A DNA stretch of 64,000 nt from an uncultured Bacteroidales bacterium (GTDB lineage Bacteria; Bacteroidota; Bacteroidia; Bacteroidales; Bacteroidaceae), in NCBI GenBank assembly GCA_902779845.1, contig CACZCZ010000002.1, positions 124,001-188,000 on the forward strand, in the 5' to 3' direction. Every line of letters begins with the position of its first letter. Position 1 is the stretch's first letter. Shown in pieces: positions 11,663 to 56,301 of the stretch. Both the position numbers and the translations under genes were made by a program. A model generated the notes under the pieces. It had not been told where the DNA came from. It ran no database searches and saw only the letters and a program-made list of their open reading frames with translations.

Positions 11663-12967
11663 TTATGATCTGTTAGCGAGGTCTTCGAGAATCTTCCACA
11701 CGTTGAGGAGGCCACGGGGCACATGGAAGCAGCCCTTCCACTTACCACCCTTGAGGGGCAGCAGCACCTCGCCCTGGCGGTTGAGGTAGCCATACCACTC
11801 GGGGTAGTCGTCATCGCGGAAGTGTTTCCAGGCGTAGTCGTGGACGCGCTGGAACCAGTCGAGGCAACGCTGGTCGCCCGTGAGCTGGTAGCCCTTGATG
11901 AGGGAGATGAGGGTCTCGAAATGTACCCACCACAGCTTCTGGTCCCATTCGAGTTCGTGGCGCGGATGGCCGAGACGGTCCATGAAGTAGAAGATGCCGT
12001 CGTACTCCTTGTCCCAGCCGTACTCCACTTCCTGAAGGGTGATTTCCACAGCCTGCTTGATGAGTTCGGGACGGCCGAGACGCTTGCCGAGGTCCATGAC
12101 GAACCACATGGCTTCGATGGCGTGGCCGGGGTTCATCTTGCGACCGTCGAAGCAATCAACGAGGTTGCCGTCCTTGCCCAGCGCCTCCACAATCAAGCCG
12201 AGCTCGGGACGATAGAAGACGTCCATGACTTCGTGCAGGCAGTCGTCGATGGCTTTCTGCAGGAAGGCGGGCTCCAGCAGGGACTCTATCTCGAGGGCTA
12301 CGTTGCAGAGAATCATCGGCAGGTCGAAGGTCTTCAGGGCACGGGCACCGGGAGCGGCCTTCGACCAACGTCCCTTGGGGTTGTCGGTCTTGGAGAGCAC
12401 GATGTCGAAGGTGCGCTTGGCGATGTCAGCGTACTCGGCAGAAAGGGAATCTGCGGCGATGGAATCGCCGCACGCATTCACCGCAGAGAGGCCACTCTTG
12501 GCGGCTGTCTGCAGGGCGATGGAGAGCTGACCGAAGGCGATGACAGCGAAGGTGTAGGAGAAGATGTTGTAGGGCTCCACGAGGGCGTGGCCTTCGCGGT
12601 CGAGGGCGAAGTACCAGTTGAGGTTGCCGTCGTGGCCGTGCTTCTTCAGGAACTCGGCACCCTGGATGGCGGCGTCGAGCCACTCCTGGCGGGGCTCCAC
12701 GGTGTTGTAGAGTTTGGAGAACATCCACACCTCGCGGCCTTGCATCCACACGAACTTATCGGTGTCATAGACGTTGCCTACGCGGTCGAGGCAGGTGAAA
12801 TAGCCGCCGAACTCGGTGTCCTGGCTTTTGTTGAGCCAGAAGGGAATGGTGCGGTCAAGCAATTCTGATTTGTAGAGCTGGGCTAATGAGGAAAAAGAGA
12901 CCTCACCCCCCAGCCCCCTCTCCAAAGGGCGAGGGGGAGTAGTTTGTTGTGCAGATTGATTATTCAT
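11663..12967 (-). CDS. nanE: N-acylglucosamine 2-epimerase (AGE family)
   Basis: (alpha/alpha)6-barrel epimerase that converts N-acetylmannosamine to N-acetylglucosamine in sialate catabolism. Family segments are FWLNKSQDTEFGGYFTCLDR, KFVWMQGREVWMFSKLYN, GHAIEAMWFVMD and ELEWDQKLWWVHFET. The start at 12967 lies inside the core of a paired palindromic element. The next residues TTPPRPLERGLGGEV (about 9-23) are encoded by one arm of that element and have no family counterpart. Total length is 434 against the usual 390-400. It follows the fusion gene and precedes the MFS gene. Confidence 0.9.
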   Translation of the reverse strand: MNNQSAQQTTPPRPLERGLGGEVSFSSLAQLYKSELLDRTIPFWLNKSQDTEFGGYFTCLDRVGNVYDTDKFVWMQGREVWMFSKLYNTVEPRQEWLDAAIQGAEFLKKHGHDGNLNWYFALDREGHALVEPYNIFSYTFAVIAFGQLSIALQTAAKSGLSAVNACGDSIAADSLSAEYADIAKRTFDIVLSKTDNPKGRWSKAAPGARALKTFDLPMILCNVALEIESLLEPAFLQKAIDDCLHEVMDVFYRPELGLIVEALGKDGNLVDCFDGRKMNPGHAIEAMWFVMDLGKRLGRPELIKQAVEITLQEVEYGWDKEYDGIFYFMDRLGHPRHELEWDQKLWWVHFETLISLIKGYQLTGDQRCLDWFQRVHDYAWKHFRDDDYPEWYGYLNRQGEVLLPLKGGKWKGCFHVPRGLLNVWKILEDLANRS

Positions 12968-13060
12968 AATGATAGTTTTTATGTATTCGTTAAGACAAGC
13001 TTTGCCGTGAGAGGTAATTACGCCCCCTCGCCCTTTGGAGAGGGGGATTGGGGGGTGAGG
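12901..13060. repeat. Paired palindromic element E1
   Basis: Arms 12901-12937 and 13023-13060 are inverted copies of a C/G-rich sequence (CCTCACCCCCCA..CCCCTCTCCAAAGGGCGAGGGGG type). They flank an 85-bp core that carries the epimerase start codon. The right arm encodes the C-terminus of the mutarotase-symporter fusion; the left arm encodes residues near the N-terminus of the epimerase. The core begins AGTAGTTTGTTGTGC, closely matching element E2. Confidence 0.88.
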
Positions 13061-15897
13061 TCTTTCCATGTCAACCCCTTCTGCTCCTCCCGCTGTGGCA
13101 TGAAGATGCTGAGGAGGAGGGCGACGAGGACGCTGACGAGCATCGAGACGAAGCCGAAGAGCAGGAAGTTGGCCTGCGTGAAGAAATTCATGTAGAGCAC
13201 CGTTGCTGTGCCGCAGAGGAAGCCGATGATGGCTGCCTTCGAACCGATGCGCGGGAAGAAGATACCCATCATGAACAGACCGCCGATGGCACCGCTGAGG
13301 AGACCGAGGATGGTGTTGAAGTAGTCCAGCAGCGACTGGATGTCAACGGTAGCCATCAGCCACGCAATAGCCATGCCTATCATGCCGGCACAGATGCCTG
13401 CGATGCGGGCCACCTTCACCTCACCGCCCTTGGGCGTTTGCTTCTTCATCTTACCCCACAGGTCCACCGTGAAGGCGGTGGAGATGGAGTTGATGTTGGA
13501 GGCGATGGTGGACATCGTAGCGGCGAAGACGGCGGCTATGAGGAGACCGGCAAGACCGGCAGGCAGCTGGCTCATCATGAAGAAGGGGAAGATGGCATCG
13601 CCCTTGGCCATGGTGATGTCGAGCTCGGCGGGATGTGTCTTGAAGAAGGTGTAGAGACCTGTGCCGATGGTGAAGAAGGCGATGGTCACGACAACGGACA
13701 TGAGGCCATTGGTGAGGATGCCACGTGCAGCGCTCTTCTCGTCGCTGGTGGTCAGATAGCGCTGGATGACGGTCTGGTCGCTGGTGTAGCTGATGAGGTT
13801 GTTGGCCAAGCCGCCGAGGATGACCACCCACCACGTGGCGTTGACGAAGTCGAACGGATTCTCGGCATCGAAGAGGAAGAGGCGGAACTTGTCGTGGTCG
13901 GTGGCTATCTGCCAGAAGTCCGAGGCGCCGTTGTCGCCGGTGTTGACAATCAGATAGACGGCAGCGAGGATGGCACCACCCACGAGGATGATGCCCTGGA
14001 TGACATCGCCCCATACGACAGCCTCGACACCGCCCATCGTGCAGTAGAGGATGGTGATGAGGGCCATCAGCGCTATACATATATATATATTAATGCCCGT
14101 GACAGCGGTCATGGCCAACGATGGCAGGAAGAGCACGAGGGCCGTGCGCGCTACCATGAAGACGATGAACAGGATGCTGGCCATCAAGCGGGTGGCGCTG
14201 TTGAAGCGGCGCTCGAGATACTCGTAAGCGGTGGTGACGTTCAGACGACGGAAGAAAGGCAGATAGTACTTGATGACGGGGAACGACACCAGGAGGATGC
14301 AGATCTGCATCGGGTAGTAGGTCCAGTCTGTGGCATAGGCCTTGGCGGGGATGCTCATGTAGGTGATGGCGCTGAGCATGGTGGCGAAGATGCTGATGCC
14401 GGCAGCCCACCACGGGATGCGGCCGCCACCCTTGAAGAAGTCATCGCCAGAGTTGCCGGCACGCTTCATGAAGTAGTAGCCGAGATAGACCATTCCCAAG
14501 AGGTACAGGATGAGCACCACCCAGTTCAGCCAACCGAAGTGGGCTGTGTAGGTGATATCGACGCGCGTGGCATCCGCCGAGCGTACACCGGGCTTCTCCT
14601 CGCCGCCGATGACAAGGGCGCTGAGGGAACCGGAGGGCGAGGCCAACGGAACAATGGCAGCACCGGCACGTGCGATGAGGGGTGAGTCGAAGACTTCAGC
14701 CCAGGAGTCGGTGATGGTGTGATAGACGAGGATGCTGCGACGGAACTGATACCAAGCAGGGTCTTGCGTCATATAGGCATAAGCCTCGGCACGGAGCGTC
14801 TCCAGCTGCTCGGCAGTGGTCGTCGTGTCAGCGATGAGGGCGTTGCGCTCCAAGGCCGCCTCGAAGATCTCTTTGTTGACACCGCCGAAGCAAAGGATAT
14901 GAGCTGCGCCGGAAGGCAGGGCAGAAGCACCTACCAAGGAAAGAGCGGCCCCCCCTACGGCCCCCGAGGGGGCTTCTATTGTATTGTTGACAGAAGGCAA
15001 AGCATCCGTGTCCCCCTCGGGGGACGACAGGGGGGCCGGTCTGGTCTGCATCAAGGAAGTTGCCATCCACTCCCCCTTCCTCGTATCATAATAGACACCA
15101 TTGCTGACGGCCTTGCGATAGCGGGGATCGAAGCCACCGAGGAGGTAGAAGTTGCTGGCGAGGGCTCCCTTCTGCACGGCGGCAGCGGGTTGCACGCGGG
15201 CTGGACCGGGCACATCGGGAAGCGTTTCCCATGCGGCACCAGTTTGGGATTCAAACCACGAGGCGGGCAACGGCCATTTCAGGCGGAAGGCCTTGCGGTT
15301 GGGGATGCCATTATGCAGACCTCCAGCGACATAGATAAAGCCATCGCCGTAGGCGGCGGCGAAGTTGTCAAGGGCGCTGGGCAGAGGGGGAAGATCCTGA
15401 CTGATGGCCTCGCCGCTCGTTCCAAGCGTCAGGAGAACTGCAAAGTCCTCGCTCTTCTGACCATCGGCAGTACCGCCAAGGCAGACAAGACCTTCAGGGG
15501 TCGTGACACTGGCTCCGTAGGCAAGGGCACAAGGCAGCGAACCGGCACGCCACCAAGTCTCCTTTCCATCGAGCGCAATCGCATAAATATCAGTATAGAA
15601 GACCTTCTGTCCACCTTCGGCGGCAGGCACATCTGGGAAGTTGCAACCTCCGGCCACCAAAACGCGGTCGTGAGGCACTGAAAAGCCCTTCGGAATATAA
15701 CCGGCAAAAGCACCACTCACGCCCTGACCGCCAAAAGCGGAGAGAGCAGGAAGGGGCAAGAAGGAGGCGTTGTTGAAGCGATGGGAAACCTCACCCCCCG
15801 TCCCCCTCTCCAAGGGGCGAGGGGGAGTAGTATCTTGTGCTAATGAAAAGCTTGTTATGAGAATCGCCAAAGCGAAAAGAGACATGATTTTTTTCAT
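13018..15897 (-). CDS. Cyclically permuted mutarotase (NanM-like) fused to sodium:solute symporter
   Basis: About 959 residues. A signal peptide (MKKIMSLFALAILITSFSLAQ) is followed by a kelch beta-propeller of the YjhT/NanM mutarotase type (about 35-430, motifs such as VLVAGGCNFPD and YVAGGLHNG). Then come about 13 transmembrane segments of the SSS family (about 450-940). NanM interconverts sialate anomers, so the propeller could feed the carrier with the right anomer. I chose ATG at 15897 over GTG at 15901-15903. Three stretches derive from C/G repeats: TTPPRPLERGTGGEV after the signal peptide, an internal segment (about 290-325), and the last residues LTPQSPSPKGEGA. It lies in a sialate operon after nanA. 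Confidence 0.9.
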   Translation of the reverse strand: MKKIMSLFALAILITSFSLAQDTTPPRPLERGTGGEVSHRFNNASFLPLPALSAFGGQGVSGAFAGYIPKGFSVPHDRVLVAGGCNFPDVPAAEGGQKVFYTDIYAIALDGKETWWRAGSLPCALAYGASVTTPEGLVCLGGTADGQKSEDFAVLLTLGTSGEAISQDLPPLPSALDNFAAAYGDGFIYVAGGLHNGIPNRKAFRLKWPLPASWFESQTGAAWETLPDVPGPARVQPAAAVQKGALASNFYLLGGFDPRYRKAVSNGVYYDTRKGEWMATSLMQTRPAPLSSPEGDTDALPSVNNTIEAPSGAVGGAALSLVGASALPSGAAHILCFGGVNKEIFEAALERNALIADTTTTAEQLETLRAEAYAYMTQDPAWYQFRRSILVYHTITDSWAEVFDSPLIARAGAAIVPLASPSGSLSALVIGGEEKPGVRSADATRVDITYTAHFGWLNWVVLILYLLGMVYLGYYFMKRAGNSGDDFFKGGGRIPWWAAGISIFATMLSAITYMSIPAKAYATDWTYYPMQICILLVSFPVIKYYLPFFRRLNVTTAYEYLERRFNSATRLMASILFIVFMVARTALVLFLPSLAMTAVTGINIYICIALMALITILYCTMGGVEAVVWGDVIQGIILVGGAILAAVYLIVNTGDNGASDFWQIATDHDKFRLFLFDAENPFDFVNATWWVVILGGLANNLISYTSDQTVIQRYLTTSDEKSAARGILTNGLMSVVVTIAFFTIGTGLYTFFKTHPAELDITMAKGDAIFPFFMMSQLPAGLAGLLIAAVFAATMSTIASNINSISTAFTVDLWGKMKKQTPKGGEVKVARIAGICAGMIGMAIAWLMATVDIQSLLDYFNTILGLLSGAIGGLFMMGIFFPRIGSKAAIIGFLCGTATVLYMNFFTQANFLLFGFVSMLVSVLVALLLSIFMPQREEQKGLTWKDLTPQSPSPKGEGA
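14947..15037. repeat. Inverted C/G repeat pair inside the fusion gene
   Basis: Arms 14947-14972 and 15012-15037 (CCCCCTCGGGGG-type palindromes with GGCC ends) face each other across a 39-bp core. The whole unit is in frame and encodes APLSSPEGDTDALPS and following residues in the kelch domain. Arm sequence differs from elements E1-E6, so it may be a second subfamily. Confidence 0.75.
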
Positions 15898-15961
15898 AAT
15901 CACTCTTTTTAAAAGGTTACTACTCCCCCTTGCCCCTCAAAGAGGGGAACAGGGGGTGAGG
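15789..15961. repeat. Paired palindromic element E2
   Basis: Inverted arms 15789-15825 and 15925-15961 lie around a 99-bp core between nanA and the fusion gene. The core holds the start codon and signal-peptide coding of the fusion. The left arm is translated directly after the signal peptide. The first core bases AGTAGTATCTTGTGC match E1 (AGTAGTTTGTTGTGC). Confidence 0.88.
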
Positions 15962-15982
15962 CCATGCTTGGCCTAAAGTCTT

Positions 15983-16903
15983 CTACTTATTGCAATGATT
16001 GAAGAAGTCGATGGCGTCGAGCTCGGCTTTCAGGCGGACTTCCTCTTCGGGAGTGATGTTCTGGAAAGGTGTGCGGTTGGGGCCGAGGTCGAGACCGATG
16101 AGCTTCATGATGCGCTTGCCGCCAACGATGTTACCACGGAAGTGGCAGATGACATCGATGACATCCTGAGCGTAGTTCTGCAGCTCGCGAGCCTTCTCCA
16201 GATCACCGGCCTTCCAAGCATCGATGATGCCCACGAGGCAGCGGCCGTTGTAGTTCGTGGTGCCACCGATGCCACCCTGAGCGCCGCCCATAGCGAGGCA
16301 CGGGAGGATGGTCTCGTCCTGACCATGGAGCATATCGAACTTTCCGTCCTTGTAGCGACGGCAGCGGTTGTACTCATAGAGGCTCTCGAAGGTGTACTTG
16401 ATACCGGCGAAGTTGGGGATGCGACCATCGACAGCCTGCAGGAAGTCGAGCATCGAGAGGAAGGCGCCGTTGAAGGCGGGGATGTGATAGAAGTAGAAGG
16501 GAAGCTTCGGCGCACCGCAGGCAATCTCCTCGCAGTATTTCACCAGTTCCTCAATACGTCCTACCTTGGGAAAAGGAGGTGCCATGGCGCCGATACCGAA
16601 GGCACCGATGGCTTGGGCGTGCTCGGCAAGGTTACGGCTACTGCGGACACAGGTGCTGCCCACGTGCACGATGACCTTGAAGTCCTGGAAGTCCTTGGTG
16701 GCAGCCATCCAAGCTTCGGCAATCTGCTTGCGCTCGTCTTCGGTGAGCATATAGCCCTCACCGCTGGAGCCATTGATAAACACGCCTTTAAGGCCATTGC
16801 GATAGAGCAGGTTGGCGTACTCGGGGATGATAGACAGGTTGATGCTGCCGTCGGCGTTCATCGGGGTGAACGGGGCATCAATAAGGCCTTTGATTTTTTC
16901 CAT
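15983..16903 (-). CDS. nanA: N-acetylneuraminate lyase
   Basis: 306-residue class I aldolase that splits sialic acid to N-acetylmannosamine and pyruvate. The Schiff-base lysine is Lys169 in FAGIKYTFE, the catalytic tyrosine Tyr139 in YFYHIPAF, and the pyruvate-binding loop GSSGEGY (45-51). It begins 40 bp downstream of rsxA and is first in the run nanA - fusion - epimerase - MFS. No clear promoter is seen in the 40-bp gap, so it could start within rsxA or read through from the Rnf operon. Confidence 0.93.
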   Translation of the reverse strand: MEKIKGLIDAPFTPMNADGSINLSIIPEYANLLYRNGLKGVFINGSSGEGYMLTEDERKQIAEAWMAATKDFQDFKVIVHVGSTCVRSSRNLAEHAQAIGAFGIGAMAPPFPKVGRIEELVKYCEEIACGAPKLPFYFYHIPAFNGAFLSMLDFLQAVDGRIPNFAGIKYTFESLYEYNRCRRYKDGKFDMLHGQDETILPCLAMGGAQGGIGGTTNYNGRCLVGIIDAWKAGDLEKARELQNYAQDVIDVICHFRGNIVGGKRIMKLIGLDLGPNRTPFQNITPEEEVRLKAELDAIDFFNHCNK

Positions 16904-16943
16904 AATAAAAGGTTAGTTTTAGAGGTTTTCAAATAGTTGTTAA

Positions 16944-17561: not shown

Positions 17562-17568
17562 AATTGAA

Positions 17569-17728
17569 GACCCACCCCCTTGCCCCTCCCGTGAGGGAGG
17601 GGAGCGGCTGGCGCAGGGATTGTTATAAGAGGGCTTTTAGGGTCATTATTTTTAAGATTTGACAATTAATTATTTAGCGTTCACCCCGCAGGTCTCCCCT
17701 CCCTTACGGGAGGGGTTGGGGGTGGGTC
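17569..17728. repeat. Paired palindromic element E3
   Basis: Arms 17569-17603 and 17694-17728 (GACCCACCCCC..CCCCTCCCGTGAGGGAGGGG type) are inverted around a 90-bp core between rsxE and rsxA. The core shares GGCTGGCGCA and TAGGGTCATT followed by a T-run with element E6 at 56.1 kb. The left arm ends 8 bp beyond the rsxA start, in its 5' leader. Confidence 0.9.
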
Positions 17729-17729
17729 T

Positions 17730-18314
17730 TTAAATCTTCGCCGTCTTCTTGACGATGGCAATCAGATAGCCGAGGGCGATGAAGGCACCGGGGGCGAGGA
17801 CGAAGAGGAGCATGCCGTAGTTCTCCGAGTAGATGACGGTGTCGAAGAGCTTACCGGTTCCGAGGAGCTCGCGGATGCCGCCGAGGAGCGTCAGGGCGAT
17901 GGTGAAGCCAAGGCCGATGCCGATGCCATCGCAGAGGCTCTCGATGGGACCGTGCTTGGCAGCGAAAGCCTCCGCACGACCGAGGATGATGCAGTTCACG
18001 ACGATGAGGGGGATGAACAGGCCGAGGGTCTTATAGACCTCAGGGGTGAAGGCCTGCATAATCATCTGCAGCGCTGTCACCAACGAGGCTATCACCACAA
18101 TGTACGAGGGGATGCGCACCATGTCGGGAATGAGGCTCTTGATGCAAGAGATAATCAGGTTGGAGAAGATGAGCACAGCCATCGTGGCCAGGCCCATCGA
18201 CATACCGTTGATGGCGCTGGAAGTGGTTCCCAGCGTGGGGCACATACCAAGGAGAAGTACGAAGGTGGGGTTCTCCTTGAGGATGCCGTTCCATAATATT
18301 TTAAAGTATTTCAT
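17730..18314 (-). CDS. rsxE: Rnf complex subunit E
   Basis: 194-residue membrane protein, paralogous to RsxA, with NPTFVLLLGMCPTLGTTSSA and VNCIILGRAEAFA. It forms the membrane core of Rnf with RsxA and RsxD. It lies between rsxG and rsxA. The stop codon touches the arm of E3; the start is preceded by element E4. Confidence 0.96.
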   Translation of the reverse strand: MKYFKILWNGILKENPTFVLLLGMCPTLGTTSSAINGMSMGLATMAVLIFSNLIISCIKSLIPDMVRIPSYIVVIASLVTALQMIMQAFTPEVYKTLGLFIPLIVVNCIILGRAEAFAAKHGPIESLCDGIGIGLGFTIALTLLGGIRELLGTGKLFDTVIYSENYGMLLFVLAPGAFIALGYLIAIVKKTAKI

Positions 18315-18325
18315 AAGAAAAATCG

Positions 18326-18474
18326 GACTCTCCCCCCGCCCTCCCTATAAGGGAGGGAGCAAAATGTTTTGCTATTGAGCAGGAATGAGTCATATTTTAA
18401 ATGATTATTTGCAACAATTACAAGTCTTGAACGGTGACCGCTCCCTCCCTCATAGGGAGGGCGGGGGGAGAGTC
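18326..18474. repeat. Paired palindromic element E4
   Basis: Two 35-bp arms (18326-18360 and 18440-18474) are inverted copies with 34 of 35 positions matching, around a 79-bp core between rsxG and rsxE. Each arm is itself a palindrome (CCCTCCCTATGAGGGAGGG type). The rsxG stop codon lies exactly in the loop of the right arm. Confidence 0.92.
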
Positions 18475-19067
18475 TGCTGCTTGCTGGCACCACTCTCTGC
18501 GTCTGTCGCACTTGCACCAGCATAGGCGTGGAAGGCTACGTTGACGGCACGGAGGAAGGCACGGGAGGTGATGGTGGAAGCGGTGATGGCGTCCACGTCG
18601 CCACCGTCCTTGCTGACGGTCAGCTCCTTCTCACCGGGGTTCTTGCCGATGATGTCGCCCTTCTCACCTTTCTGGAACCAGAAGCCGGCCTTGGCGCCGA
18701 GGCCCGGGGTCTCAGCATGTTCGAGGACGGTGTAGCCCTTGATGGCTCCAACCTCGTCGAAGCCGACAAGAACTTTCAGTTTGCCACCGAAGCCGTTGGG
18801 GTCGATGGCCTGCACAGCCACGCCTTTATCGGTGGCGTAGAGGATGACGGGGTTGCCGTTGGCGTCCTCGGCTTCGGTGGTTGATTCCACCTTGGCATCG
18901 GAAACGCCCAGCACCGAGTTGATACCCTCGGCCAGCACACGGGCCTTGTTCTCTTCAATGGGGCCTGCCGTTACTCCATTCACGTAGGCCAGAGCACCTG
19001 CGGCGATGACCGAGATGAGGGTCAGCACACAGAGCATATTGGGAAGTGTAGATGGTAACTTTTTCAT
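18450..19067 (-). CDS. rsxG: Rnf complex subunit G (covalent FMN protein)
   Basis: 205 residues with one N-terminal membrane anchor and an extracytoplasmic FMN-binding domain. The flavinylation motif appears as DAITASTITSRAF, where the second threonine of ASTIT would carry FMN. The last eight residues QTLPPPSL come from the arm of element E4, so the native C-terminus has been replaced or extended. The start overlaps rsxD by 4 bp. Confidence 0.94.
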   Translation of the reverse strand: MKKLPSTLPNMLCVLTLISVIAAGALAYVNGVTAGPIEENKARVLAEGINSVLGVSDAKVESTTEAEDANGNPVILYATDKGVAVQAIDPNGFGGKLKVLVGFDEVGAIKGYTVLEHAETPGLGAKAGFWFQKGEKGDIIGKNPGEKELTVSKDGGDVDAITASTITSRAFLRAVNVAFHAYAGASATDAESGASKQQTLPPPSL

Positions 19068-44950: not shown

Positions 44951-44965
44951 AGCCCCCACCCCAGC

Positions 44966-45102
44966 AGACCCACCCCCACCCTCTCCCGTGGAGGGAGAGG
45001 AGTTTCAGTCCTCTGGACTACGCTACTACTGAGAAGTATGACTAAAAATATAGAACCTACGCGCAATCCTGCTCCCCTCCCTACAAGGGAGGGCGGGGGG
45101 AG
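44966..45102. repeat. Paired palindromic element E5
   Basis: Arms 44966-45001 (GACCCACCCCC start) and 45072-45102 are inverted C/G palindromes around a 70-bp core between tgt and lptF/G. The core contains the lptF/G start codon, and the right arm encodes its residues about 10-22. Arm identity is lower than in E4. Confidence 0.8.
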
Positions 45103-46222
45103 GCTCCGTTCTTTCTTTTTTACTTTTAAGCGCAACCTCTTCTCCCGCTTCGACCGTTACATCATCACCAAGTTCCTGGGGACCTACTTCTTCAGCATCA
45201 TCCTCATCATCTCCATCGCTGTGGTCTTTGACTTCTCCGAACACTCGGACAAGTTCACGATGAACCATGCGCCGCTGGACGGTCTTTTCTACTACTACCT
45301 CAACTTCATCCCCTTCTATAGCAACCTCTTCTCGGCCCTCTTCGTGTTCATCTCCGTCATTTTCTTCACCTCGAAGCTGGCGGAGAACTCCGAGATTATC
45401 GCCATGATGAGCACCGGCGTCAGCTTCGGACGCCTGCTGCGGCCCTATTTGCTGTCTTCAGCCATCCTGGCCGCCATCAGTTTCTACCTCGGCTCCGAGG
45501 TCATCCCTGCAGGTTCCGTGAAGCGTTTGGAGTTCGAGATGCTCTACAAGAGTCGCCGCAAGCCGCAGATGGCTGAGCATGTGCAGCTGCAGGTCGATAC
45601 AGGCGTCATCGCTTACATCGACCACTTCGACGGGCAGGTCAAGAGCGGCTACCGCTTCTCCTTGGACAAGTTCCAGAACAAGAGCCTCGTCAGCCACCTC
45701 ACCGCTCAGCGCATCCAGTATGACACGCTGGCCGACGAGCGCTACCACTGGAAACTCTACGACGTGAAAATCCGCACACTACAAGGCTTGCGCGAAGAAA
45801 TCACACGCAAGAACTTCGTCGATAGCGTCATCTTCATGGAACCCAAAGACTTCCTGGCCACCAAGAACCAACAGGAAACGCTCACCAACAGCGAGCTGCT
45901 TGACTATATCGAGCGACAGAAGCTACGCGGTTCCGGCAACGTCAAGGTCTTCGAAGTGGAGTACCACAAGCGCTTTGCCGCGCCCTTCGCTGCCTTCATC
46001 CTATCGACCATCGGCCTCTGTCTCTCCTTCCGCAAGCGCAAGGGCGGCATGGGCACCGCACTCGGTCTCGGCATCGCCCTCTCAGCCACCTACATCATGT
46101 TCCAGACCGTCAGTTCCACCTTCGCCATCAACAGCAGCTGGCCCCCTATCCTCGCGGCCTGGTTCCCCAATATCATCTTCACCTTCATCGCCATTTATCT
46201 CTACCGGCGTTCCCTCAGATAA
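45038..46222 (+). CDS. LptF/LptG-family permease
   Basis: 394 residues, six membrane helices with a periplasmic domain between helices 3 and 4; part of the ABC complex that extracts LPS from the inner membrane. The conserved N-terminus begins at FDRYIITKFLGTYFFS (about residue 37). No ATG lies between it and 45038, so the start sits in element E5 and residues NPAPLPTREGGGRLRS are repeat-encoded. LptF and LptG cannot be told apart here. Confidence 0.88.
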   Translation: MTKNIEPTRNPAPLPTREGGGRLRSFFFTFKRNLFSRFDRYIITKFLGTYFFSIILIISIAVVFDFSEHSDKFTMNHAPLDGLFYYYLNFIPFYSNLFSALFVFISVIFFTSKLAENSEIIAMMSTGVSFGRLLRPYLLSSAILAAISFYLGSEVIPAGSVKRLEFEMLYKSRRKPQMAEHVQLQVDTGVIAYIDHFDGQVKSGYRFSLDKFQNKSLVSHLTAQRIQYDTLADERYHWKLYDVKIRTLQGLREEITRKNFVDSVIFMEPKDFLATKNQQETLTNSELLDYIERQKLRGSGNVKVFEVEYHKRFAAPFAAFILSTIGLCLSFRKRKGGMGTALGLGIALSATYIMFQTVSSTFAINSSWPPILAAWFPNIIFTFIAIYLYRRSLR

Positions 46223-49346: not shown

Positions 49347-49467
49347 GAGTACTCGCCACCAATGCCAAGCGTGAGTATTTTCGGGCATGAACCTTATATT
49401 ATATAAAAGCCCCTGAAAAAAGAAGTACCAGCCAACCACCCAAGACATGCGGAATCCCCCGAAAATG

Positions 49468-49880
49468 TAAACAGATTACAGATTACAGTTTTTTTTCTCG
49501 ACCCCACAACCAGCCGTGGAGGGACTTTTAAGTGTAATAATTATTTAGTGTATTATTATTTATAATATATTGATATATAATAATATATATAATAATTATA
49601 TCATAGATATATCTATCTCTTCTTCTCTCTTCTCAGCCCTCATCCTGCAAAATCCTCGCCGAAAAAAACTGTTTACTGTTTACATCTGTGGACATGAAAA
49701 CTCACCCCTACGATGAGAGAAAAAACGCCCCCAGCCGAGAGATACCCCCTCGCGAAAAAAACTGTAATCTGTTGACATCTGTTGACATCTGTCCTCGTTG
49801 ACCTTCGGAGTTGAATGAGGACAGCTCTGACGGGCAACCTCGGCGATGGCAATGTAAACAGATGTCAACAGATTACAGTT
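49468..49880. repeat. Clusters of CTGT-type repeats around an A+T-rich segment
   Basis: Four clusters of related units (ACAGATTACAG, CTGTTTAC, CTGTTGACAT) lie at about 49468-49490, 49669-49688, 49760-49793 and 49854-49880. The last two contain a perfect 24-bp inverted repeat: 49760-49783 and 49857-49880, with 73 nt between. Within 49768-49791 CTGTTGACAT repeats at a 10-bp period. Between the first two clusters, 49525-49620 is almost pure A/T with overlapping palindromes. No gene is seen. Confidence 0.75.
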
Positions 49881-49902
49881 ATTTTCTACACGGTCAACAC
49901 AC

Positions 49903-50068: not shown

Positions 50069-50129
50069 CCTGAGGGCTTGAGGGCTTGAAAAATGTGGGG
50101 GGCGAGGGGATGGTATAGAGGGTTTTTTC

Positions 50130-50160
50130 TTGGTGCTTTGCCAAATAAGGGCTATCTTTG
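50130..50160 (+). promoter_or_regulatory. Promoter of the LMW phosphatase gene
   Basis: TTG (50130-50132), a 20-nt spacer and TATCTTTG (50153-50160), a full consensus. The start codon is 78 nt downstream. Confidence 0.65.
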
Positions 50161-50238
50161 CATCGCAGTTGAACAAACAGCTTTCGAGCTGGCGAACATC
50201 GTTCACGCTATCTGTTGGAACATTTTGGAACAAGACGC

Positions 50239-50688: not shown

Positions 50689-50712
50689 GAGACATCCCAC
50701 CCCTACGGAATA

Positions 50713-50755
50713 CAGAAAAGAGGCCGTGTCAAAATAACGACATAGCCCCTTTTCC
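50713..50755. terminator. Possible bidirectional terminator
   Basis: AAAAGAGGC...GCCCCTTTTC with an inner TGTC/GACA pair forms an imperfect stem between the convergent phosphatase and yebC genes, with A and T runs on either side. Confidence 0.5.
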
Positions 50756-50791
50756 GTATATATATAATAAGGTATAGGCGAAGGGGGCGTA

Positions 50792-51463
50792 TTATGCCTC
50801 TTCGGGCTTCATGTTGGTATAGACGGTCTGGACGTCGTCGAACTCTTCGAGGCGCTCCACCATCTTGTCGATGCTCTCGCGCTGCTCGGGGGTCACGTCC
50901 TTGAGGTCGTTGGGGATGTAGGTGAACTCACCGCCGACATCCTCGAAGCCGCTCTCCTCGAGATGCTTCTGGATGGCGCCGTAGCTCTTGGGGTCGCCGT
51001 AGATGGTGAGTGTGCCTTCTTCCTCGTCCTCGTCGTACTCGTCCTCCACACCGTAGTCGATGAGGTCGAGGATGAGCTCGTCCATGTCGATGCCGTCCTT
51101 CTTCTTGAAGGTGAACACACACTTGTGGTCGAAGAGGAATGCGAGGCTACCCATCGTGCCGAGGTTGCCGCCGAACTTGTTGAAGACGCTGCGCACGTCG
51201 GCCACGGTGCGCGTGGGGTTGTCGGTGAGGGTGTCCACGAAGACGGCGACGCCGTGGGGGCCGTAGCCCTCGTAGGTCATGCCCTTGTAGTCGCTCTGGT
51301 CCTTGCCCATCGCGTTCTTGATGGCGCGGTCGATGTTGTCCTTCGGCATGTTCTCGCGCTTGCAGGTGATGGCGATCTGCTTGCCTAACTTGGTGAATGT
51401 CTTTGCCATGTGGCCCCAGCGCTTCAGCTTGGCGGCCTTGCGGTATTCAAATGCTCTTCCCAT
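50792..51463 (-). CDS. yebC: YebC/PmpR-family protein
   Basis: 223 residues. N-terminus MGRAFEYRKAAKLKRW matches the YebC family, with GYGPHGVAVFVDTLTDNPTRT and SLAFLFDHKCVF downstream. The family was named as transcription regulators and is now linked to translation of polyproline stretches. This is notable beside the Pro-rich repeat-encoded peptides of this genome, though that link is speculative. It is slightly shorter than the usual 240. Confidence 0.94.
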   Translation of the reverse strand: MGRAFEYRKAAKLKRWGHMAKTFTKLGKQIAITCKRENMPKDNIDRAIKNAMGKDQSDYKGMTYEGYGPHGVAVFVDTLTDNPTRTVADVRSVFNKFGGNLGTMGSLAFLFDHKCVFTFKKKDGIDMDELILDLIDYGVEDEYDEDEEEGTLTIYGDPKSYGAIQKHLEESGFEDVGGEFTYIPNDLKDVTPEQRESIDKMVERLEEFDDVQTVYTNMKPEEA

Positions 51464-51475
51464 GGATTAATTTGA

Positions 51476-51515
51476 CGATTTTACGATTATACGATTTTAC
51501 GATTTAACGACTTTA
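51476..51515 (-). repeat. 8-bp tandem array upstream of yebC
   Basis: CGATT-type units start every 8 bp at 51476, 51484, 51492, 51500 and 51508, ending 12 nt upstream of the yebC start. Confidence 0.8.
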
Positions 51516-51828
51516 GTAATAAAAGAATATTAAATTTCCTATTTATTTTCCTTTTTATCCTTATTATCTTTCTTTGCAAGATATTCTCTGGTAGAGATAA
51601 TGGACCCGTTTCATCCAATTCCTCCTCAACCATTTTCAACTTGTTAAGAAAATCCTTTTCTGATTTTCCAATACAAGCAGCTCTATAATTGGCTCCAGGA
51701 GAAGTCCCCGATCTCACAATTTGCTTACCTATTGCATTGGCAGAATTGGTTTGAGGCAAATTATCCACCAGATTGATAATCCGTTTGGAAAATGCCTTCA
51801 ACCGTTCCTTCAATTCAAGTTCTGTCAT
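51487..51828 (-). pseudogene. Four-helix-bundle (23S insertion-type) protein, decayed C-terminus
   Basis: The N-terminal ~75 residues match the TIGR02436 four-helix-bundle family (AFSKRIINLVDNLP; IGKQIVRSGTSPGANYRAAC; FLNKLKMVEEELDET). The following residues lose the family pattern. A +1 frame after DET reads SIISTREYLAKK, which looks like the natural continuation, so a frameshift, probably with an internal deletion, is likely. The product would end in basic residues inside the yebC repeat array. Such proteins are often mobile or encoded within 23S rRNA insertions; function unknown. Confidence 0.6.
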
Positions 51829-51837
51829 GCTATGCAG

Positions 51838-51869
51838 GTGAAATCGTGAAATCGTGAAATTGTGAAATC
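51838..51869 (-). repeat. 8-bp tandem array between pheT and the four-helix-bundle gene
   Basis: GTGAAATC repeats four times (51838, 51846, 51854, 51862), ending 9 nt from the four-helix-bundle start and touching the pheT stop. Confidence 0.82.
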
Positions 51870-54375
51870 AACGCAGCTCCGCATTGAGCTGCTTGGTCAG
51901 GTTCTGAATCAGCTTCTGCATGATGGCGTCGATGGCCTTGTCGTTGAGGGTCTTGGACTCATCCTGCAGGATGAAGTTGACAGCGTAGGATTTCTTGCCG
52001 GCAGGCAGGTTCTTGCCTTCATAGACATCGAAGAGGCGGACGTCCTTGAGGAGCTTGCGCTCGCTCTGGTAGGCGATGGCCTCGATCTGTGCGAACTCGA
52101 CGCTCTTGTCCACGAGGAGGGCGAGGTCGCGGCTGACGGCGGGGTACTTGGGCAGGTCGTTGTAGCTGACCTTCTCCTTGCGGATGAGGCGCATGACCTG
52201 CTGCCAGGCGATGTCGGCGAAATAGACTTCCGTGGGGATGTCGAAGGCTACCTGCAGGCGCTTGGCCACGATGCCGAGCTGCGCGATGACCTTGCCGCCG
52301 CGGTTCTCGATGAGGATGCTCTTGGAGAAGATGTCGTTGGTGCCGGCCTTGAAGACGAGGGAGCCGAAGGGCACGCCCACGCGCTGGAGGATGTTCAGCA
52401 CCTGTGCCTTGAGGACGTAGAAGGACTGGTCCTCGTCGGGATGTGCCCACGAGCCGCTGACGCGCTTGCCCGTAATCCACAGGCCGAGGTGGTAGTCCTC
52501 GCTGTAGGCATCAAGGACATGCTTGATGACTTCGGGGTCGCGACTGCTGCTGACGCCGGGGATGATGTCGGCGCACTTCTTCTCGGCGTGGAAGTAGTAG
52601 CAGTTGCCGAACTCGAAGAACTGCAGGTCGCCACGACGGCGGTTGACGTTGCGGCTGATGCTCTCCAAGCCGCCGAAGAGCAACGTCTGGCGCAGCACGG
52701 CAAGATCCTGCGAGAGCGGGTTCAGCAGGCGCACACAGTTGGCAGCGGGGTAGTTCTGTACGTCGTCGTAGTACGACGACTTACTCAACGAATTATTCAG
52801 AATCTCGTTGAAGCCGGCTCCCACGAGCTGCTCGGAGACGAGGTTCTGCAGCTTGAAGCTCTTATCGACATCGCCCTTGATGGCGATGGTGGAGTTCAGT
52901 GAGAGGGGTATCTCCACATTATTATATCCGTAGATGCGCAGGATGTCTTCGACCACGTCGCAGGGGCGCTGCACATCGACGCGGTAGGCAGGCACGAGGA
53001 GCTGCAGCCCCTCGGCCGTCTCGCTGACAATCTTCATCTCCAGGGAGGTGACGATGCTCTTGACGGTCTCGGCGGGGATGTGCTTGCCGATGAGGTTATC
53101 GACGTAGTCGTACTTCAAATCCACGGGGAAGTCCTGCATGGGCGTGGGATAGACATCCACAATCTCCATGCTGACCTTGCCGCCCGCGAGCTCCTGGCAC
53201 ATCTTGGCAGCCAGCTTCAGGGCGTAGATCTGGCCGTTGGGGTCGATGCCGCGTTCGAAGCGGAAGCTGGCATCGGTCTGCAGGCCGTGGCGACGGGCGC
53301 TCTTGCGAATCCATGTGGGGTTGAAGTAGGCGCTCTCGAGGAGCACGTTGCGGGTGGTCTCATAGGTGCCGCTGCCCTTGCCGCCATAGACACCGCCGAT
53401 GCACATGGGCTCCTGGGTGTTGCAGATCATCAGGTCGTGGTCGCTGAGCTTGCGGTCGATGCCGTCGAGGGTCTGGAAGGGTGTGCCCTCGGGCATGGTC
53501 TTCACGATGACCTCGCCGCCGGTGATCATGTCTGCATCGAAGCAGTGCAGGGGCTGACCGAAAGCCATCATGATGTAGTTGGTGATATCGACGATGTTGT
53601 TGATGGGACGCAGACCGATGGTGGTCAGGTGGTCCTTCAGCCACTGCGGGCTCTCCTTGACCTCGCAGTCCGTGACGGTCACGGCAGCGTAGCGGGGGCA
53701 AGCCTCGGTGTTCTCCACGCGGATGGGAATCTCGAGGTCGTGGTTATCGACCTTGAAGTCCTCGACAGAGGGACGGTGGAGGGCTGTCTTGTAGCCGTTC
53801 TGGATGAGCCAGGCGTAGAGGTCGCGGGCCACGCCGTAGTGCGAGCAGGCATCGGCGCGGTTGGCGGTGATATCGACTTCGATGAGCCAGTCGCTCTCAA
53901 GGCCGTAGTACTCGGCAGCGGGAGTGCCCACGACAGCGTCGGCGGGCAGCACGATGATGCCGCTGTGGTCGGTGCCTACGCCAATCTCGTCTTCAGCGCA
54001 GATCATGCCGTTGGACTCGATGCCACGCAGCTTGCTCTTCTTGATGACGAACTCCTGGTCGCCGTCGTAGAGCTTGGTGCCGAGGGTGGCCACGATGACC
54101 TTCTGGCCGGCAGCCACATTGGGCGCACCGCAGACAATCTGCTGCACCTCGGGGGTGCCGATGTTCACGGTGCAGACGTGCATGTGGTCGCTGTTGGGAT
54201 GTGCTTCGCAGGTGAGCACCTCGCCCACGACGAGACCCTGGAGGCCTCCCTTGATGGTCTGTACTTCTTCCACGCCATCTACTTCGAGACCTGCAGAAGT
54301 GAGGGCTGCTGCGACTTCCTGCGCCGACAAGGTTGTCTCGACGTACTCACGAAGCCATTTGTAGGAGATATTCAT
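51868..54375 (-). CDS. pheT: Phenylalanine-tRNA ligase beta subunit
   Basis: 835 residues with the tRNA-binding OB domain (VVGEVLTCEAHPNSDHMHVC), the B3/B4 editing domain, B5 (DVQRPCDVVEDILRIYGYNNVEIP) and the C-terminal ferredoxin-like anticodon-binding domain (YPAVSRDLALLVD). It forms an alpha2-beta2 enzyme with PheS, which is not in this window. Confidence 0.97.
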   Translation of the reverse strand: MNISYKWLREYVETTLSAQEVAAALTSAGLEVDGVEEVQTIKGGLQGLVVGEVLTCEAHPNSDHMHVCTVNIGTPEVQQIVCGAPNVAAGQKVIVATLGTKLYDGDQEFVIKKSKLRGIESNGMICAEDEIGVGTDHSGIIVLPADAVVGTPAAEYYGLESDWLIEVDITANRADACSHYGVARDLYAWLIQNGYKTALHRPSVEDFKVDNHDLEIPIRVENTEACPRYAAVTVTDCEVKESPQWLKDHLTTIGLRPINNIVDITNYIMMAFGQPLHCFDADMITGGEVIVKTMPEGTPFQTLDGIDRKLSDHDLMICNTQEPMCIGGVYGGKGSGTYETTRNVLLESAYFNPTWIRKSARRHGLQTDASFRFERGIDPNGQIYALKLAAKMCQELAGGKVSMEIVDVYPTPMQDFPVDLKYDYVDNLIGKHIPAETVKSIVTSLEMKIVSETAEGLQLLVPAYRVDVQRPCDVVEDILRIYGYNNVEIPLSLNSTIAIKGDVDKSFKLQNLVSEQLVGAGFNEILNNSLSKSSYYDDVQNYPAANCVRLLNPLSQDLAVLRQTLLFGGLESISRNVNRRRGDLQFFEFGNCYYFHAEKKCADIIPGVSSSRDPEVIKHVLDAYSEDYHLGLWITGKRVSGSWAHPDEDQSFYVLKAQVLNILQRVGVPFGSLVFKAGTNDIFSKSILIENRGGKVIAQLGIVAKRLQVAFDIPTEVYFADIAWQQVMRLIRKEKVSYNDLPKYPAVSRDLALLVDKSVEFAQIEAIAYQSERKLLKDVRLFDVYEGKNLPAGKKSYAVNFILQDESKTLNDKAIDAIMQKLIQNLTKQLNAELR

Positions 54376-54378
54376 CTA

Positions 54379-54431
54379 TTTGACAATTTGACAATTTTAC
54401 GATTTGACAATTTGCGATTTGCGATTTGCGG
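54379..54431 (-). repeat. 8/7-bp tandem array upstream of pheT
   Basis: Four 8-bp units (TTTGACAA type at 54379, 54387, 54395, 54403), then three 7-bp TTTGCGA units (54411, 54418, 54425). The array begins 3 nt from the pheT start. Confidence 0.82.
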
Positions 54432-54496
54432 GCGCAAAAGTACAAAAAAGATTTGAATCGCACATGATTTTTCATCAGGAATTTAATTCCTGACGC

Positions 54497-56065
54497 TCAG
54501 AATGGCATATCACCGGCTGGCGGAGGGGGGCCAAAGGGTGTGTCGGCATCGTTGACCACGGGTGGCGCTTCAGGGGCAGGTGCATTGGGAGCATCGGTGT
54601 CTTCGGCGTTGAGAGACGAGCCGAGGGTGACACTCTCGCCGGGAGCCGGGATATAGACATCCTCGTCGGGGTCCTGGAAGCGGGCGTATTCATTGCGGAA
54701 GCGCAGCAGCACGGTATCGACAGCGCCATTACGATGCTTGGCAATGATGAACTCTGCCATGCCGCGCAGGTTGCGACCCTTCTCGTCCTGATAGATTTTG
54801 TAGTATTCGGGGCGATGGATGAAGCACACCATGTCGGCATCCTGCTCGATAGCACCGGACTCACGCAGGTCGCTGAGCTGCGGGCGCTTGCCCTCGTCGC
54901 CCTCGCGCTTCTCCACGCTACGGTTGAGCTGCGACAGCGCGATGATGGGGATGTTCAGCTCCTTGGCAAGTCCCTTCAGCGAACGACTGATGTTGGAGAC
55001 CTCCTCCTGGCGCGAACCGAAGCTCATGCCCGAGGCGTTCATCAGCTGCAGGTAGTCGATGAGGATGATTCTCACGCCATGCTCACGGACAAGGCGACGG
55101 GCCTTGGTGCGCAATTCGAAGACAGAGAGCGAGGGCGTGTCGTCGATATAGAAGGGTGCATCATAAAGCTGGCGGATGCGGTTGTCCAGCTGGCCCCATT
55201 CGTAGGGCAGCAGCTGGCCGCTCTTGATCTTCTCGCCCGGCAGTTCGCAGACGTTCACAATCAGGCGGTTCACCAACTGCACATTGCTCATCTCCAACGA
55301 GAACATGGCACAAGGCACCTTCGCGTCCACGGCAATCTTCTTGGCCATAGACAGCACGAAAGCCGTCTTACCCATGGCCGGGCGGGCTGCGATGATGATG
55401 AGGTCGGAGTTCTGCCAGCCGCTGGTGATCTTGTCGATTTTGGCAAAACCGCTGGAGAGGCCCGAGAGGCCATCCTGCCTGGCTGCGGCCTTCTGCAGCA
55501 TCACATAGGCTTCATGGATGACGGGATTGATCTGCGTGTAGTCCTTCTTGAGGTTCTGCTGGGAGATGGCAAAGAGCTTGCCCTCGGCCTCCTGCATCAG
55601 GTCGTCAACGTCGATGGTGGTGTCAAAAGCCTGCTGCGAGACCTGGCTGGCAAAGGTAATCAGCTCGCGAGCCAGGAATTTCTGGGCGATGATGCGGGCA
55701 TGGTACTCGATGTGAGCCGACGAGGTGACGCTGGAAGACAGCTGCAGCAGGTAGGCCACGCCGCCGGCATCCTCCAGCACGTTCTGCGACTCGAGATAGT
55801 CCTGAACAGTCAGGATATCCACGGGCCGCTGCTGGGCGCTCAGCGAGCGCACGGCATCGAAGATGACCTGATGGCGGTGGTCATAGAAACTCTCGGGACG
55901 CAGGAGTTCACTCACCTGCGAGTAGGCATCCTGCTCAATCATCAGCGCACCGATGACGGCACGCTCCATCTCCAGGTTCTGAGGCTGCTGGCGGCCAAAG
56001 GCATCTTCCGTGGGTACCGCAACCTGTTTTGTCCGTGTACGCGGACGGCGATTTGTATCTGGCAT
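54497..56065 (-). CDS. dnaB: Replicative DNA helicase
   Basis: 522 residues: N-terminal DnaB domain (PQNLEMERAVIGALMIEQDAY) and C-terminal RecA-like domain with Walker A ARPAMGKTAF, IILIDYLQLM and ESGAIEQDADMVCF. No intein is present. The tail is Pro/Ala-rich (about 485-522). It unwinds DNA at the fork. Element E6 lies between its start and kdsB. Confidence 0.97.
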   Translation of the reverse strand: MPDTNRRPRTRTKQVAVPTEDAFGRQQPQNLEMERAVIGALMIEQDAYSQVSELLRPESFYDHRHQVIFDAVRSLSAQQRPVDILTVQDYLESQNVLEDAGGVAYLLQLSSSVTSSAHIEYHARIIAQKFLARELITFASQVSQQAFDTTIDVDDLMQEAEGKLFAISQQNLKKDYTQINPVIHEAYVMLQKAAARQDGLSGLSSGFAKIDKITSGWQNSDLIIIAARPAMGKTAFVLSMAKKIAVDAKVPCAMFSLEMSNVQLVNRLIVNVCELPGEKIKSGQLLPYEWGQLDNRIRQLYDAPFYIDDTPSLSVFELRTKARRLVREHGVRIILIDYLQLMNASGMSFGSRQEEVSNISRSLKGLAKELNIPIIALSQLNRSVEKREGDEGKRPQLSDLRESGAIEQDADMVCFIHRPEYYKIYQDEKGRNLRGMAEFIIAKHRNGAVDTVLLRFRNEYARFQDPDEDVYIPAPGESVTLGSSLNAEDTDAPNAPAPEAPPVVNDADTPFGPPPPAGDMPF

Positions 56066-56094
56066 ATATTAAATAGCAGACCCGTCCCCCAACA

Positions 56095-56301
56095 GACCCA
56101 CCCCCAACCCCTCCCGTTAGGGAGGGGAGTAGGGCTGGCGCATAGAAGGTTTATAGGGTCATTCTTTTTAGAGTTTATGTTTACTATTTATTTAAATCAA
56201 GTCAAATACCATCCCGAAACTCCCCCGAGACTCTCACTATCCGGAGGCTCTCACTATCCGGAGGCTCTCCCCTCCCTCACGGGAGGGGTTGGGGGTGGGT
56301 C
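56095..56301. repeat. Paired palindromic element E6
   Basis: Arms 56095-56129 and 56267-56301 are near-perfect inverted copies (GACCCACCCCCAACCCCTCC start). The 137-bp core shares GGCTGGCGCA and TAGGGTCATT plus a T-run with E3 at 17.6 kb. The core also holds a 17-bp direct repeat (56231-56247, 56248-56264). The right arm encodes the last residues and the stop of kdsB. Confidence 0.9.

What the first reader, a model, noticed from the sequence alone, without database searches (positions are those of the whole stretch)
12901..56301. Family of paired palindromic elements sited inside operons
Six elements (12901-13060, 15789-15961, 17569-17728, 18326-18474, 44966-45102, 56095-56301) share one plan: two inverted arms of about 30-38 bp, each itself a C/G palindrome with a 1-5-nt loop, around a core of 70-137 bp. 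All lie between co-directional genes, and the downstream start codon is in or near the core. Core sequence is shared between distant copies: GGCTGGCGCA and TAGGGTCATT plus a T-run in E3 and E6; AGTAGTnTnTTGTGC in E1 and E2. They look like non-autonomous mobile units that settled in operons and would fold into large hairpins in mRNA around initiation sites.
Basis: partly seen in the sequence, partly recalled or inferred. Interest (0 to 1): 0.85.

Follow-up and report, generated by a model that had tools for sequence, protein, structure and literature searches.

The report
Nuclease-bearing palindromic elements inside genes
The six hairpin-like repeats belong to a large family of mobile DNA in Prevotella-related bacteria whose full-length members carry a small homing-type nuclease and settle between and inside working genes without breaking the reading frame, which points to a nuclease as the possible driver of palindromic repeats that have no known transposase.

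Summary
E1-E6 are real. The host genome holds at least 150 similar arms (capped count). In 90 stretches, 208 arms form 75 inverted pairs and 58 singles; neighbours within 200 bp are 73 '+-', 4 '++', 0 '-+', 0 '--'. The E1, E3, E4 and E5 sites are occupied in some species of the genus and empty in others, so these are insertions. First, elements are translated: 72 of 133 lie in an open frame with at least 40 codons on each side (RecG, CarA, IspD, PolA and others; at least two frames spurious), and E1, E2 and E5 supply the downstream gene's start codon. Second, about 500-bp versions carry a DUF559 nuclease gene: all 4 DUF559 hits in this genome and 96 of 109 Bacteroidota loci (92 of 105 without duplicates; control 0 of 198) lie between inverted palindromic arms; 12 of 20 hand-picked loci elsewhere too (control 1 of 40). 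The predicted fold matches homing endonuclease I-Bth0305I. Best reading: a splicing-free, homing-like element with short nuclease-less relatives. Arm-nuclease association and in-frame insertion are shown; mobilisation by the nuclease is inferred. RAYT transposases correlate with arm number equally well but are rarely near arms.

The parts
12898..13063 (.). E1: type-C element between a NanM-kelch/SSF symporter gene (upstream on - strand) and a GlcNAc 2-epimerase gene; arms 12898-12947 (+) and 13013-13063 (-)
   Evidence: arm model, inverted repeat, genes; relative G107 has it (L385), L386, L391 and L412 lack it
12965..12967 (-). start codon supplied by E1: MNNQSAQQTTPPRPLERGLGGEV leads into SFSSLAQLYKSELL of the epimerase; without the element the gene starts MIDFKKLAEQY
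   Evidence: translation; empty sites L386 and L412, read by hand
13018..13020 (-). stop codon of the upstream gene, inside E1; its tail TPQSPSPKGEGA is element-encoded
15786..15964 (.). E2: type-C element between a nanA-like lyase (DHDPS family) gene and the NanM-SSF gene; arms 15786-15835 (+), 15915-15964 (-); core encodes a signal-peptide-like N-terminus MKKIMSLFALAILITSFSLAQD followed by arm peptide TTPPRPLERGTGGEV
   Evidence: relative L411 has a signal-peptide-like start without arms (by eye)
15895..15897 (-). start codon inside the E2 core
   Evidence: reading of the sequence
17567..17730 (.). E3: type-A element between rnfE-like and rnfA-like genes; arms 17567-17616 (+), 17681-17730 (-); core mini-ORF ATGACCCTA
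   Evidence: of the 30 loci fetched 28 readable, own genome included: 12 C/G-arm elements (2 degenerate), 7 other AT-rich sequence, 9 empty (sorted by eye)
18324..18476 (.). E4: type-B element between rnfG-like and rnfE-like genes; replaces the last codons of RnfG (PKN*) and the ribosome-binding region; RnfG tail TLPPPSL is arm-encoded
   Evidence: ortholog in L305; clearly empty in 9 of 30 loci (L310, L313, L318, L320, L325, L327-L330)
44965..45108 (.). E5: mismatched-arm element between tgt and an LptF/LptG gene; in several relatives the two genes overlap (ATGA or TAATG)
   Evidence: empty sites L420, L433, L434, L435, L437 by eye
45038..45040 (+). start codon supplied by the E5 core: MTKNIEPTRNPAPLPTREGGG leads into the LptF/G protein
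   Evidence: Pfam LptF_LptG match begins at residue 40 of 394
56093..56303 (.). E6: type-A element between a CTP_transf_3 (KdsB-like) gene and dnaB; arms 56093-56143 (+), 56255-56303 (-); stop of the upstream gene (56277) lies in the arm
   Evidence: empty sites not looked for
14942..15042 (.). further palindrome pair of another arm type, in frame inside the NanM-SSF gene (RPAPLSSPEGDTDALPSVNNTIEAPSGAVGGA)
   Evidence: NANM domain matched in two stretches

Best explanation
E1-E6 are short, nuclease-less members of a family of mobile elements bounded by inverted C/G-rich palindromic arms. The full-length member is about 500 bp: arm, a 120-aa DUF559 (Vsr/EDxHD-type homing) endonuclease gene, arm. 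Inferred steps: the nuclease cuts a target site and the element is copied into the break by host repair, as in homing; short elements are nuclease-less copies moved in trans. The element survives in operons and inside genes because its arms are open in the frame used (peptides such as LPSLTGGVGGGS, TAPSLTGRAGGES) and its core often supplies a stop for the upstream gene and a start for the downstream one, so host proteins gain a loop, tail or leader, or even a whole nuclease domain, without splicing. Shown: arms, inverted pairing, insertion polymorphism, in-frame insertion, nuclease between arms, constraint on the nuclease. Inferred: that the nuclease drives movement, and that the short forms depend on it.
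For: DUF559 genes lie between inverted arms: 4 of 4 hits in the own genome, one a remnant; 96 of 109 Bacteroidota loci against 0 of 198 shifted controls (the first run, with one misplaced locus, gave 92 of 109), 92 of 105 after merging five duplicate pairs; 12 of 20 hand-picked loci of Cyanobacteria, Deinococcus, Proteobacteria and one phage contig against 1 of 40. The arm model built from E1-E6 and own-genome arms finds arms on both sides of DUF559 in 19 of 30 genus loci at E<=0.1 (read off). The C21 nuclease element is present in G137 and absent (13-47 nt gap) in 7 of 18 readable loci, own genome included. Close nuclease pairs (>=75% nt identity): 15 of 28 have unrelated flanks; median dN/dS 0.17 over the 15 unsaturated pairs among 72 sequences. 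Fold: 3hrl E=1e-6 and homing endonuclease I-Bth0305I (3r3p) E=1e-4, prob 1.00, TM 0.78 by target length and 0.64 by query; Vsr weaker, E=0.045. In-frame: nuclease domain inside a Cap5F homologue between its residues 311 and 314, inside a GH31 and an ABC protein; arms inside RecG, CarA, IspD; 20 of 20 frames sampled have, for at least one insert, Pfam domains spanning it or on both sides; open in host frame 111 of 130 against 86.7 +/- 4.7 expected, and exit phases of pairs [25,14,57], P=2e-7. Genomes with arms have DUF559 more often: 35 of 47 against 2 of 14, P=8e-5 (related genomes, so not independent).
Against: No movement or cleavage was observed. Arm number correlates as well with RAYT-like transposases (rho 0.66) as with DUF559 (rho 0.62) over 61 genomes. 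12 of 47 genomes with arms show no DUF559, among them G018 with 99 arms (incomplete MAGs). Core ends of short elements resemble those of nuclease elements only weakly: 11 of 150, one of them the C21 nuclease element itself, against 2 and 5 in controls. Some cores are host-like sequence (E2; IspD). 8 of 20 loci from other phyla do not pass the arm test. DUF559 in Caulobacter has been proposed as a mismatch-repair enzyme (PMC12907096, passages).
Confidence: 0.6

Rival explanations
1. The arms are REP sequences and the pairs REPINs, moved by HUH tyrosine transposases (RAYTs); DUF559 is a passenger.
For: Pairs are inverted doublets with hairpins, as in REPINs; intragenic REPs are known (PMC3733652 section 15); RAYT-like genes in the own genome, one in the window at 3220-4404; arm number correlates with RAYT matches, rho 0.66.
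Against: Arms occur in only 2 of 53 genus Y1/RAYT-type loci (171 kb, some loci overlapping; one of the two hits weak) and beside 1 of 8 own RAYT-like genes, whereas DUF559 genes mostly lie between arms. No GT[AG]G tag directly 5' of the hairpin in the 28 aligned arms (read by eye). The window RAYT has different repeats beside it.
Confidence: 0.2
2. A different, unidentified enzyme moves the arms, and the DUF559 gene is cargo that benefits from riding in them.
For: 12 of 47 genomes with arms show no DUF559; most copies seen have no gene; core ends match poorly.
Against: DUF559 is found between arms in four phyla (Bacteroidota, Cyanobacteriota, Deinococcota, Pseudomonadota) with quite different arm sequences and is under purifying selection. 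No other gene was seen repeatedly between arms, but none was searched for systematically.
Confidence: 0.15
3. The pairs are not units: single arms insert independently or are copied locally in inverted orientation, so the core is simply host DNA caught between two arms.
For: E2, L078 and L085 cores look like signal peptides of the downstream gene (by eye); in IspD the two arms flank a native segment.
Against: 73 '+-' against 4 '++', 0 '-+', 0 '--' within 200 bp; at E3 the empty site has only 4-6 nt between stop and ATG, so that core arrived with the arms.
Confidence: 0.25
4. Host-maintained RNA hairpins that tune translation at operon junctions.
For: Very stable predicted folds, position at start codons.
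Against: Presence varies between species at the same junction and unrelated sequences with other inverted repeats replace them; many copies lie inside domains; no Rfam match.
Confidence: 0.08

Closest known systems
Rickettsia palindromic elements (RPE) and CGTC-tagged REPs
   Same: Palindromic elements in frame inside protein genes, singles and dimers; no dedicated transposase known for CGTC repeats (PMC3733652 abstract, sections 15 and 16; PMC10969869 passages).
   Different: No nuclease is linked to them in the parts of those papers that I read; sequence relation to our arms was not tested; here full-length members carry DUF559.
REPIN / RAYT systems
   Same: Inverted hairpin doublets, many copies, intergenic and intragenic (PMC3116915 passages; PMC6006769 sections 12 and 25).
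   Different: No GT[AG]G tag at the 5' foot, little physical link to RAYT genes here; a nuclease of another fold between the arms. PMC6006769 notes that subclass 2.6 RAYTs of Bacteroidetes have atypical structures without that tag, which I could not compare.
EDxHD / Vsr-like homing endonucleases (I-Bth0305I)
   Same: Fold match; DUF559 has been assigned to this family in print (PMC9403480 passage); same-site occupancy in CapF-like genes of different genera.
   Different: No intron or intein found; bounded by palindromic arms; many target sites; no further domain beside DUF559 in the 121- and 129-aa proteins.
MITEs
   Same: Short, inverted-repeat ended, gene-less copies beside a longer coding form.
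   Different: No target-site duplication seen at E4 or E5; partner gene is not a known transposase.

Membership tests
REPIN/GTAG REP | GT[AG]G tetranucleotide at the 5' foot of the hairpin | tested here: not met
   28 arms aligned, read by eye on both strands
REPIN/GTAG REP | repeats flank a RAYT gene | tested here: not met
   2 of 53 genus Y1/RAYT-type loci and 1 of 8 own RAYT-like genes have an arm within about 1.5 kb
REPIN/GTAG REP | inverted doublets forming hairpins | tested here: met
   73 of 77 neighbouring arm pairs within 200 bp are '+-'
Rickettsia palindromic elements | in-frame insertion in unrelated protein genes | tested here: met
Rickettsia palindromic elements | sequence homology to RPE families | not tested
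   no RPE sequence was fetched
EDxHD homing endonuclease | Vsr-like fold as in I-Bth0305I | tested here: met
   AF2 pLDDT 88.7; Foldseek 3r3p E=1e-4, prob 1.00
EDxHD homing endonuclease | conserved catalytic residues | tested here: inconclusive
   16 invariant columns in 34 sequences, among them E29, D57, E68, D70, H74, D83; not mapped on the 3r3p active site
EDxHD homing endonuclease | site-specific cleavage and homing | not testable with these tools
   needs enzyme assays
Intein or self-splicing intron | intein domain or intron RNA around the nuclease | tested here: not met
   no intein domain in 10 proteins; no intron family by Rfam in window, L106, L118, L059, L288
MITE / insertion sequence | terminal inverted repeats | tested here: met
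MITE / insertion sequence | target-site duplication | tested here: not met
   none seen at E4 or E5 against empty sites of other species; E4 replaces about 22 nt, read by eye

The most novel reading that the evidence does not exclude
A cross-phylum class of mobile elements in which a tiny Vsr-type homing nuclease, bounded by palindromic arms and without any splicing device, spreads itself and gene-less arms into genes by making every insertion translatable. DUF559 would then be the missing partner of the palindromic repeats that lack a known transposase (RPE, CGTC REPs, the C/G repeats of Cyanobacteria and Bacteroidota).
Probability: 0.45. Interest if true: 0.93.

Novelty: new variant of a known kind. 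Interest (0 to 1): 0.85.

Why it matters
REP-like palindromes are common repeats of bacteria, yet for the CGTC-tagged ones no dedicated transposase is known (PMC3733652, abstract and section 16). A gene that mostly sits between such arms, in four phyla, makes the question of what moves them directly testable. It would also be a route by which enzymes such as CarA, RecG, DNA polymerase I, MutS2 and guanylate kinase acquire loops, tails, leaders and fusions in nature, and it would explain odd in-frame insertions in predicted proteins.

Tried and rejected
RAYT as cognate enzyme: searched in own genome and genus; little physical link, though copy numbers correlate, so it stays a rival. Derivation of short-element cores from nuclease elements by sequence: weak. 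Known RNA family: only a tRNA in the window and four loci. Structure library pdb_via not available.

Literature: DUF559 gives 14 papers, none about palindromic repeats by title or by the listed start of the abstract; five element peptides give none; 'endonuclease domain-containing protein', palindromic repeat, in-frame insertion and Bacteroidetes: no paper holds 3 of 4; palindromic repeats, REP sequences, homing endonuclease and mobile: 133 papers hold 3 of 4, 15 were listed and none links the two in bacteria by title. Other searches. The library is open-access PMC only, so absence is weak. Papers seen: PMC3733652 (abstract, sections 15 and 16, passages), PMC6006769 (sections 12 and 25, passages); passages only of PMC3116915, PMC10969869, PMC9403480, PMC3943268, PMC12907096.

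Loci were the best-scoring ones: 30 of the DUF559 places, 80 of 90 relatives, 30 per DNA search. A few near-palindromic arms are counted on both strands (L054 434/437). The 72 of 133 includes a spurious frame at E1 (it runs on upstream) and at E6 (antisense); others may be spurious too; Pfam was run on 20 of those frames, chosen by hand in list order. One search misplaced one locus (L219); one search corrects it. L237 was too short to test. Of the 13 misses, 11 show arms on both sides by eye; L275 and L279 show one side. E6 and own-genome sites other than C21 were not tested for empty sites. The 20 loci were picked by hand from 36 plasmid-collection records (19) and 9 phage records (1); some are from one genus; the cut-off 14.5 was set after the first 12; at 15 it is 11 of 20 against 1 of 40. 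Notebook entries written hold two slips (7-10 nt counts the stop codon; '71ish' is 73); the report has the corrected values. Gene names such as rnf, tgt, kdsB are recalled labels for the Pfam families; signal peptides were judged by eye.

Full report
What is there. The six elements exist as described. Each is a pair of inverted arms; each arm is an outer tail (A)GACCCACCCCC-like, a C/G hairpin such as CCCCTCCC-GTNA-GGGAGGGG, and an inner tag (GGCTGGCGC, or AGTARTTACC-like). E5 differs: its two arms are of different type. A pattern search gave 88 hits in the host genome (a 2.92-Mb, 47-contig assembly, 86% complete) against 0 for the reversed pattern. A covariance model of the arm (R1) scored 150 arms, its cap. 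In the window plus 89 stretches fetched around hits, 208 arms form 75 inverted pairs and 58 singles. Neighbouring arms within 200 bp are 73 '+-', 4 '++', 0 '-+', 0 '--'. In the genus 47 of 61 genomes, own included, have arms.

They are insertions. For the rnf operon the 30 best of 133 matching genomes were fetched. At the E3 site (rnfE|rnfA) 28 of these 30, own included, could be read: 12 have an element with C/G arms (two degenerate), 7 have other AT-rich sequence, mostly with inverted repeats of another kind, and 9 are empty with 4-6 nt between stop and ATG. E4 has one ortholog (L305) and 9 clearly empty sites with a GGAG- or GAAG-type leader; several more lack arms but have longer RnfG tails. 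E4 replaced the last codons of RnfG and about 22 nt, with no target-site duplication visible. E1 is shared with a relative that is 92% identical over the region (L385) and absent in L386, L391 and L412, where the epimerase starts MIDFKKLAEQY (L412, L386 by eye). At E5, tgt and lptF/G overlap in several relatives (ATGA in L420, L433, L434, L435; TAATG in L437), so E5 split an overlap and supplied a spacer with its own start.

They are translated. E1, E2 and E5 supply the start codon of the downstream gene, read through the outgoing arm; the stop of the upstream gene lies inside E1, E4 and E6. Genome-wide, 72 of 133 elements lie in an open frame with at least 40 codons on both sides, at least two of them spurious. 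In all 20 frames sampled, at least one insert has Pfam domains spanning it or on both sides. Alignments to solved structures place arm peptides as insertions in RecG (1gm5), in CarA at several points, and in IspD, where two arms flank a native segment. Host frames are open through the arm in 111 of 130 cases, against 86.7 +/- 4.7 expected for a random frame, and exit phases are biased, [25,14,57] for pairs and [11,4,19] for singles. Selection on host genes can create this bias after insertion; it does not by itself show targeting.

The nuclease form. One 493-bp element (L106, C21) had a DUF559 gene in its core. All four DUF559 hits of the genome, one of them a remnant, lie between inverted arms. 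A scan of public genomes with this protein gave 80 loci, all labelled Bacteroidota, mostly Prevotellaceae or Bacteroidaceae assemblies. With 30 genus loci, 109 could be tested for inverted repeats in the 300 bp on either side: 96 score 15 or more, 81 score 20 or more; shifted controls 0 of 198, maximum 14.5. Five pairs of loci are the same or nearly the same DNA; merged, 92 of 105 pass. Median element length is 504 bp over the 92 of the first run. In 20 hand-picked loci of Cyanobacteria, Deinococcus, Proteobacteria and one phage contig, 12 score 14.5 or more against 1 of 40 controls; some again sit inside gene clusters (suf, paa; hpa on the opposite strand). In the phage contig the repeat found is not C/G rich. 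The C21 element is present in G137 and absent in 7 of the 18 loci that could be read at that site; some of the rest hold other C/G-arm elements there.

In-frame nuclease fusions. In L288 (Parabacteroides) an insert of about 150 aa with the nuclease sits between residues 311 and 314 of a Cap5F homologue. L199 has the same domain order, with the same cupin-type domain split in the same way, and L298 shows the same flanking sequence by eye. This recalls homing into a conserved site, though vertical inheritance is not excluded. Other hosts: guanylate kinase, IspF (YgbB family), phosphoglycerate mutase, a GH31 and an ABC protein. In 16 of 110 loci the nuclease lies in a frame longer than 200 aa. 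No intein or intron was found.

What the nuclease is. The alignment of 34 proteins has 16 invariant columns. The model (pLDDT 88.7) matches the Neisseria protein 3hrl and the homing endonuclease I-Bth0305I (E=1e-4, prob 1.00), then Vsr more weakly (E=0.045). DUF559 was already called EDxHD homing-type in print (PMC9403480, passage) and, in Caulobacter, Vsr-like (PMC12907096, passages). dN/dS is 0.17 (median of 15 unsaturated pairs); 15 of 28 close nuclease pairs have unrelated flanks, so the element has changed sites.

RAYT or nuclease? Arm number correlates with both (rho 0.66 and 0.62). Physical linkage separates them: an arm near 2 of 53 genus Y1/RAYT-type loci and 1 of 8 own RAYT-like genes against most DUF559 loci. 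The presence test favours DUF559 (P=8e-5 against 0.06). The genomes are related, so these P values are not independent tests.

Open points. No movement was observed; short-element cores do not clearly derive from nuclease elements; some cores are host sequence, so the pair may not always be the mobile unit; 12 of 47 genomes with arms show no DUF559. I therefore hold the association, insertion polymorphism and in-frame reading as shown by sequence, and the homing-like mechanism as the likeliest inference.

Noticed in passing
window 3220-4404 (+) and 4600-4995: A RAYT-like tyrosine transposase paralogue followed by inverted and tandem CCTACATCAAA / ATGATGTAGGT repeats: probably a separate transposase-repeat unit.
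   Followed up: partly
window 14942-15042: GCCCCC...GGGGGC palindrome pair in frame inside the NanM-SSF fusion gene.
   Followed up: partly
window 49465-49886: Several inverted copies of AACTGTAATCTGTTGACAT-like sequence in a stretch without long ORFs.
   Followed up: no
L315, L316, L322, L325 (E3 site); L387, L394, L400, L413 (E1 site): AT-rich sequences with other inverted repeats occupy the same junctions in relatives; gaps up to about 800 nt.
   Followed up: no
L001 1261-2565: The 434-aa RAYT-like protein has a low-complexity repeat (EVHGGERDAA, GARGDEG) between its HUH and Y motifs; in-frame REP inserts at that place are described for subclass 2.4 (PMC6006769 section 12).
   Followed up: no
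L119 1098-3932: CarA with several element inserts is joined in one frame to CarB through an element; FeoA-FeoB are likewise in one frame around an element in L077.
   Followed up: partly
L321, L323, L332 (E3 site): Empty sites reading TAGACTCT-ATG, TAAAAGACA-ATG and TAAAAGACT-ATG resemble the element end AGACTC and may be excision footprints.
   Followed up: no
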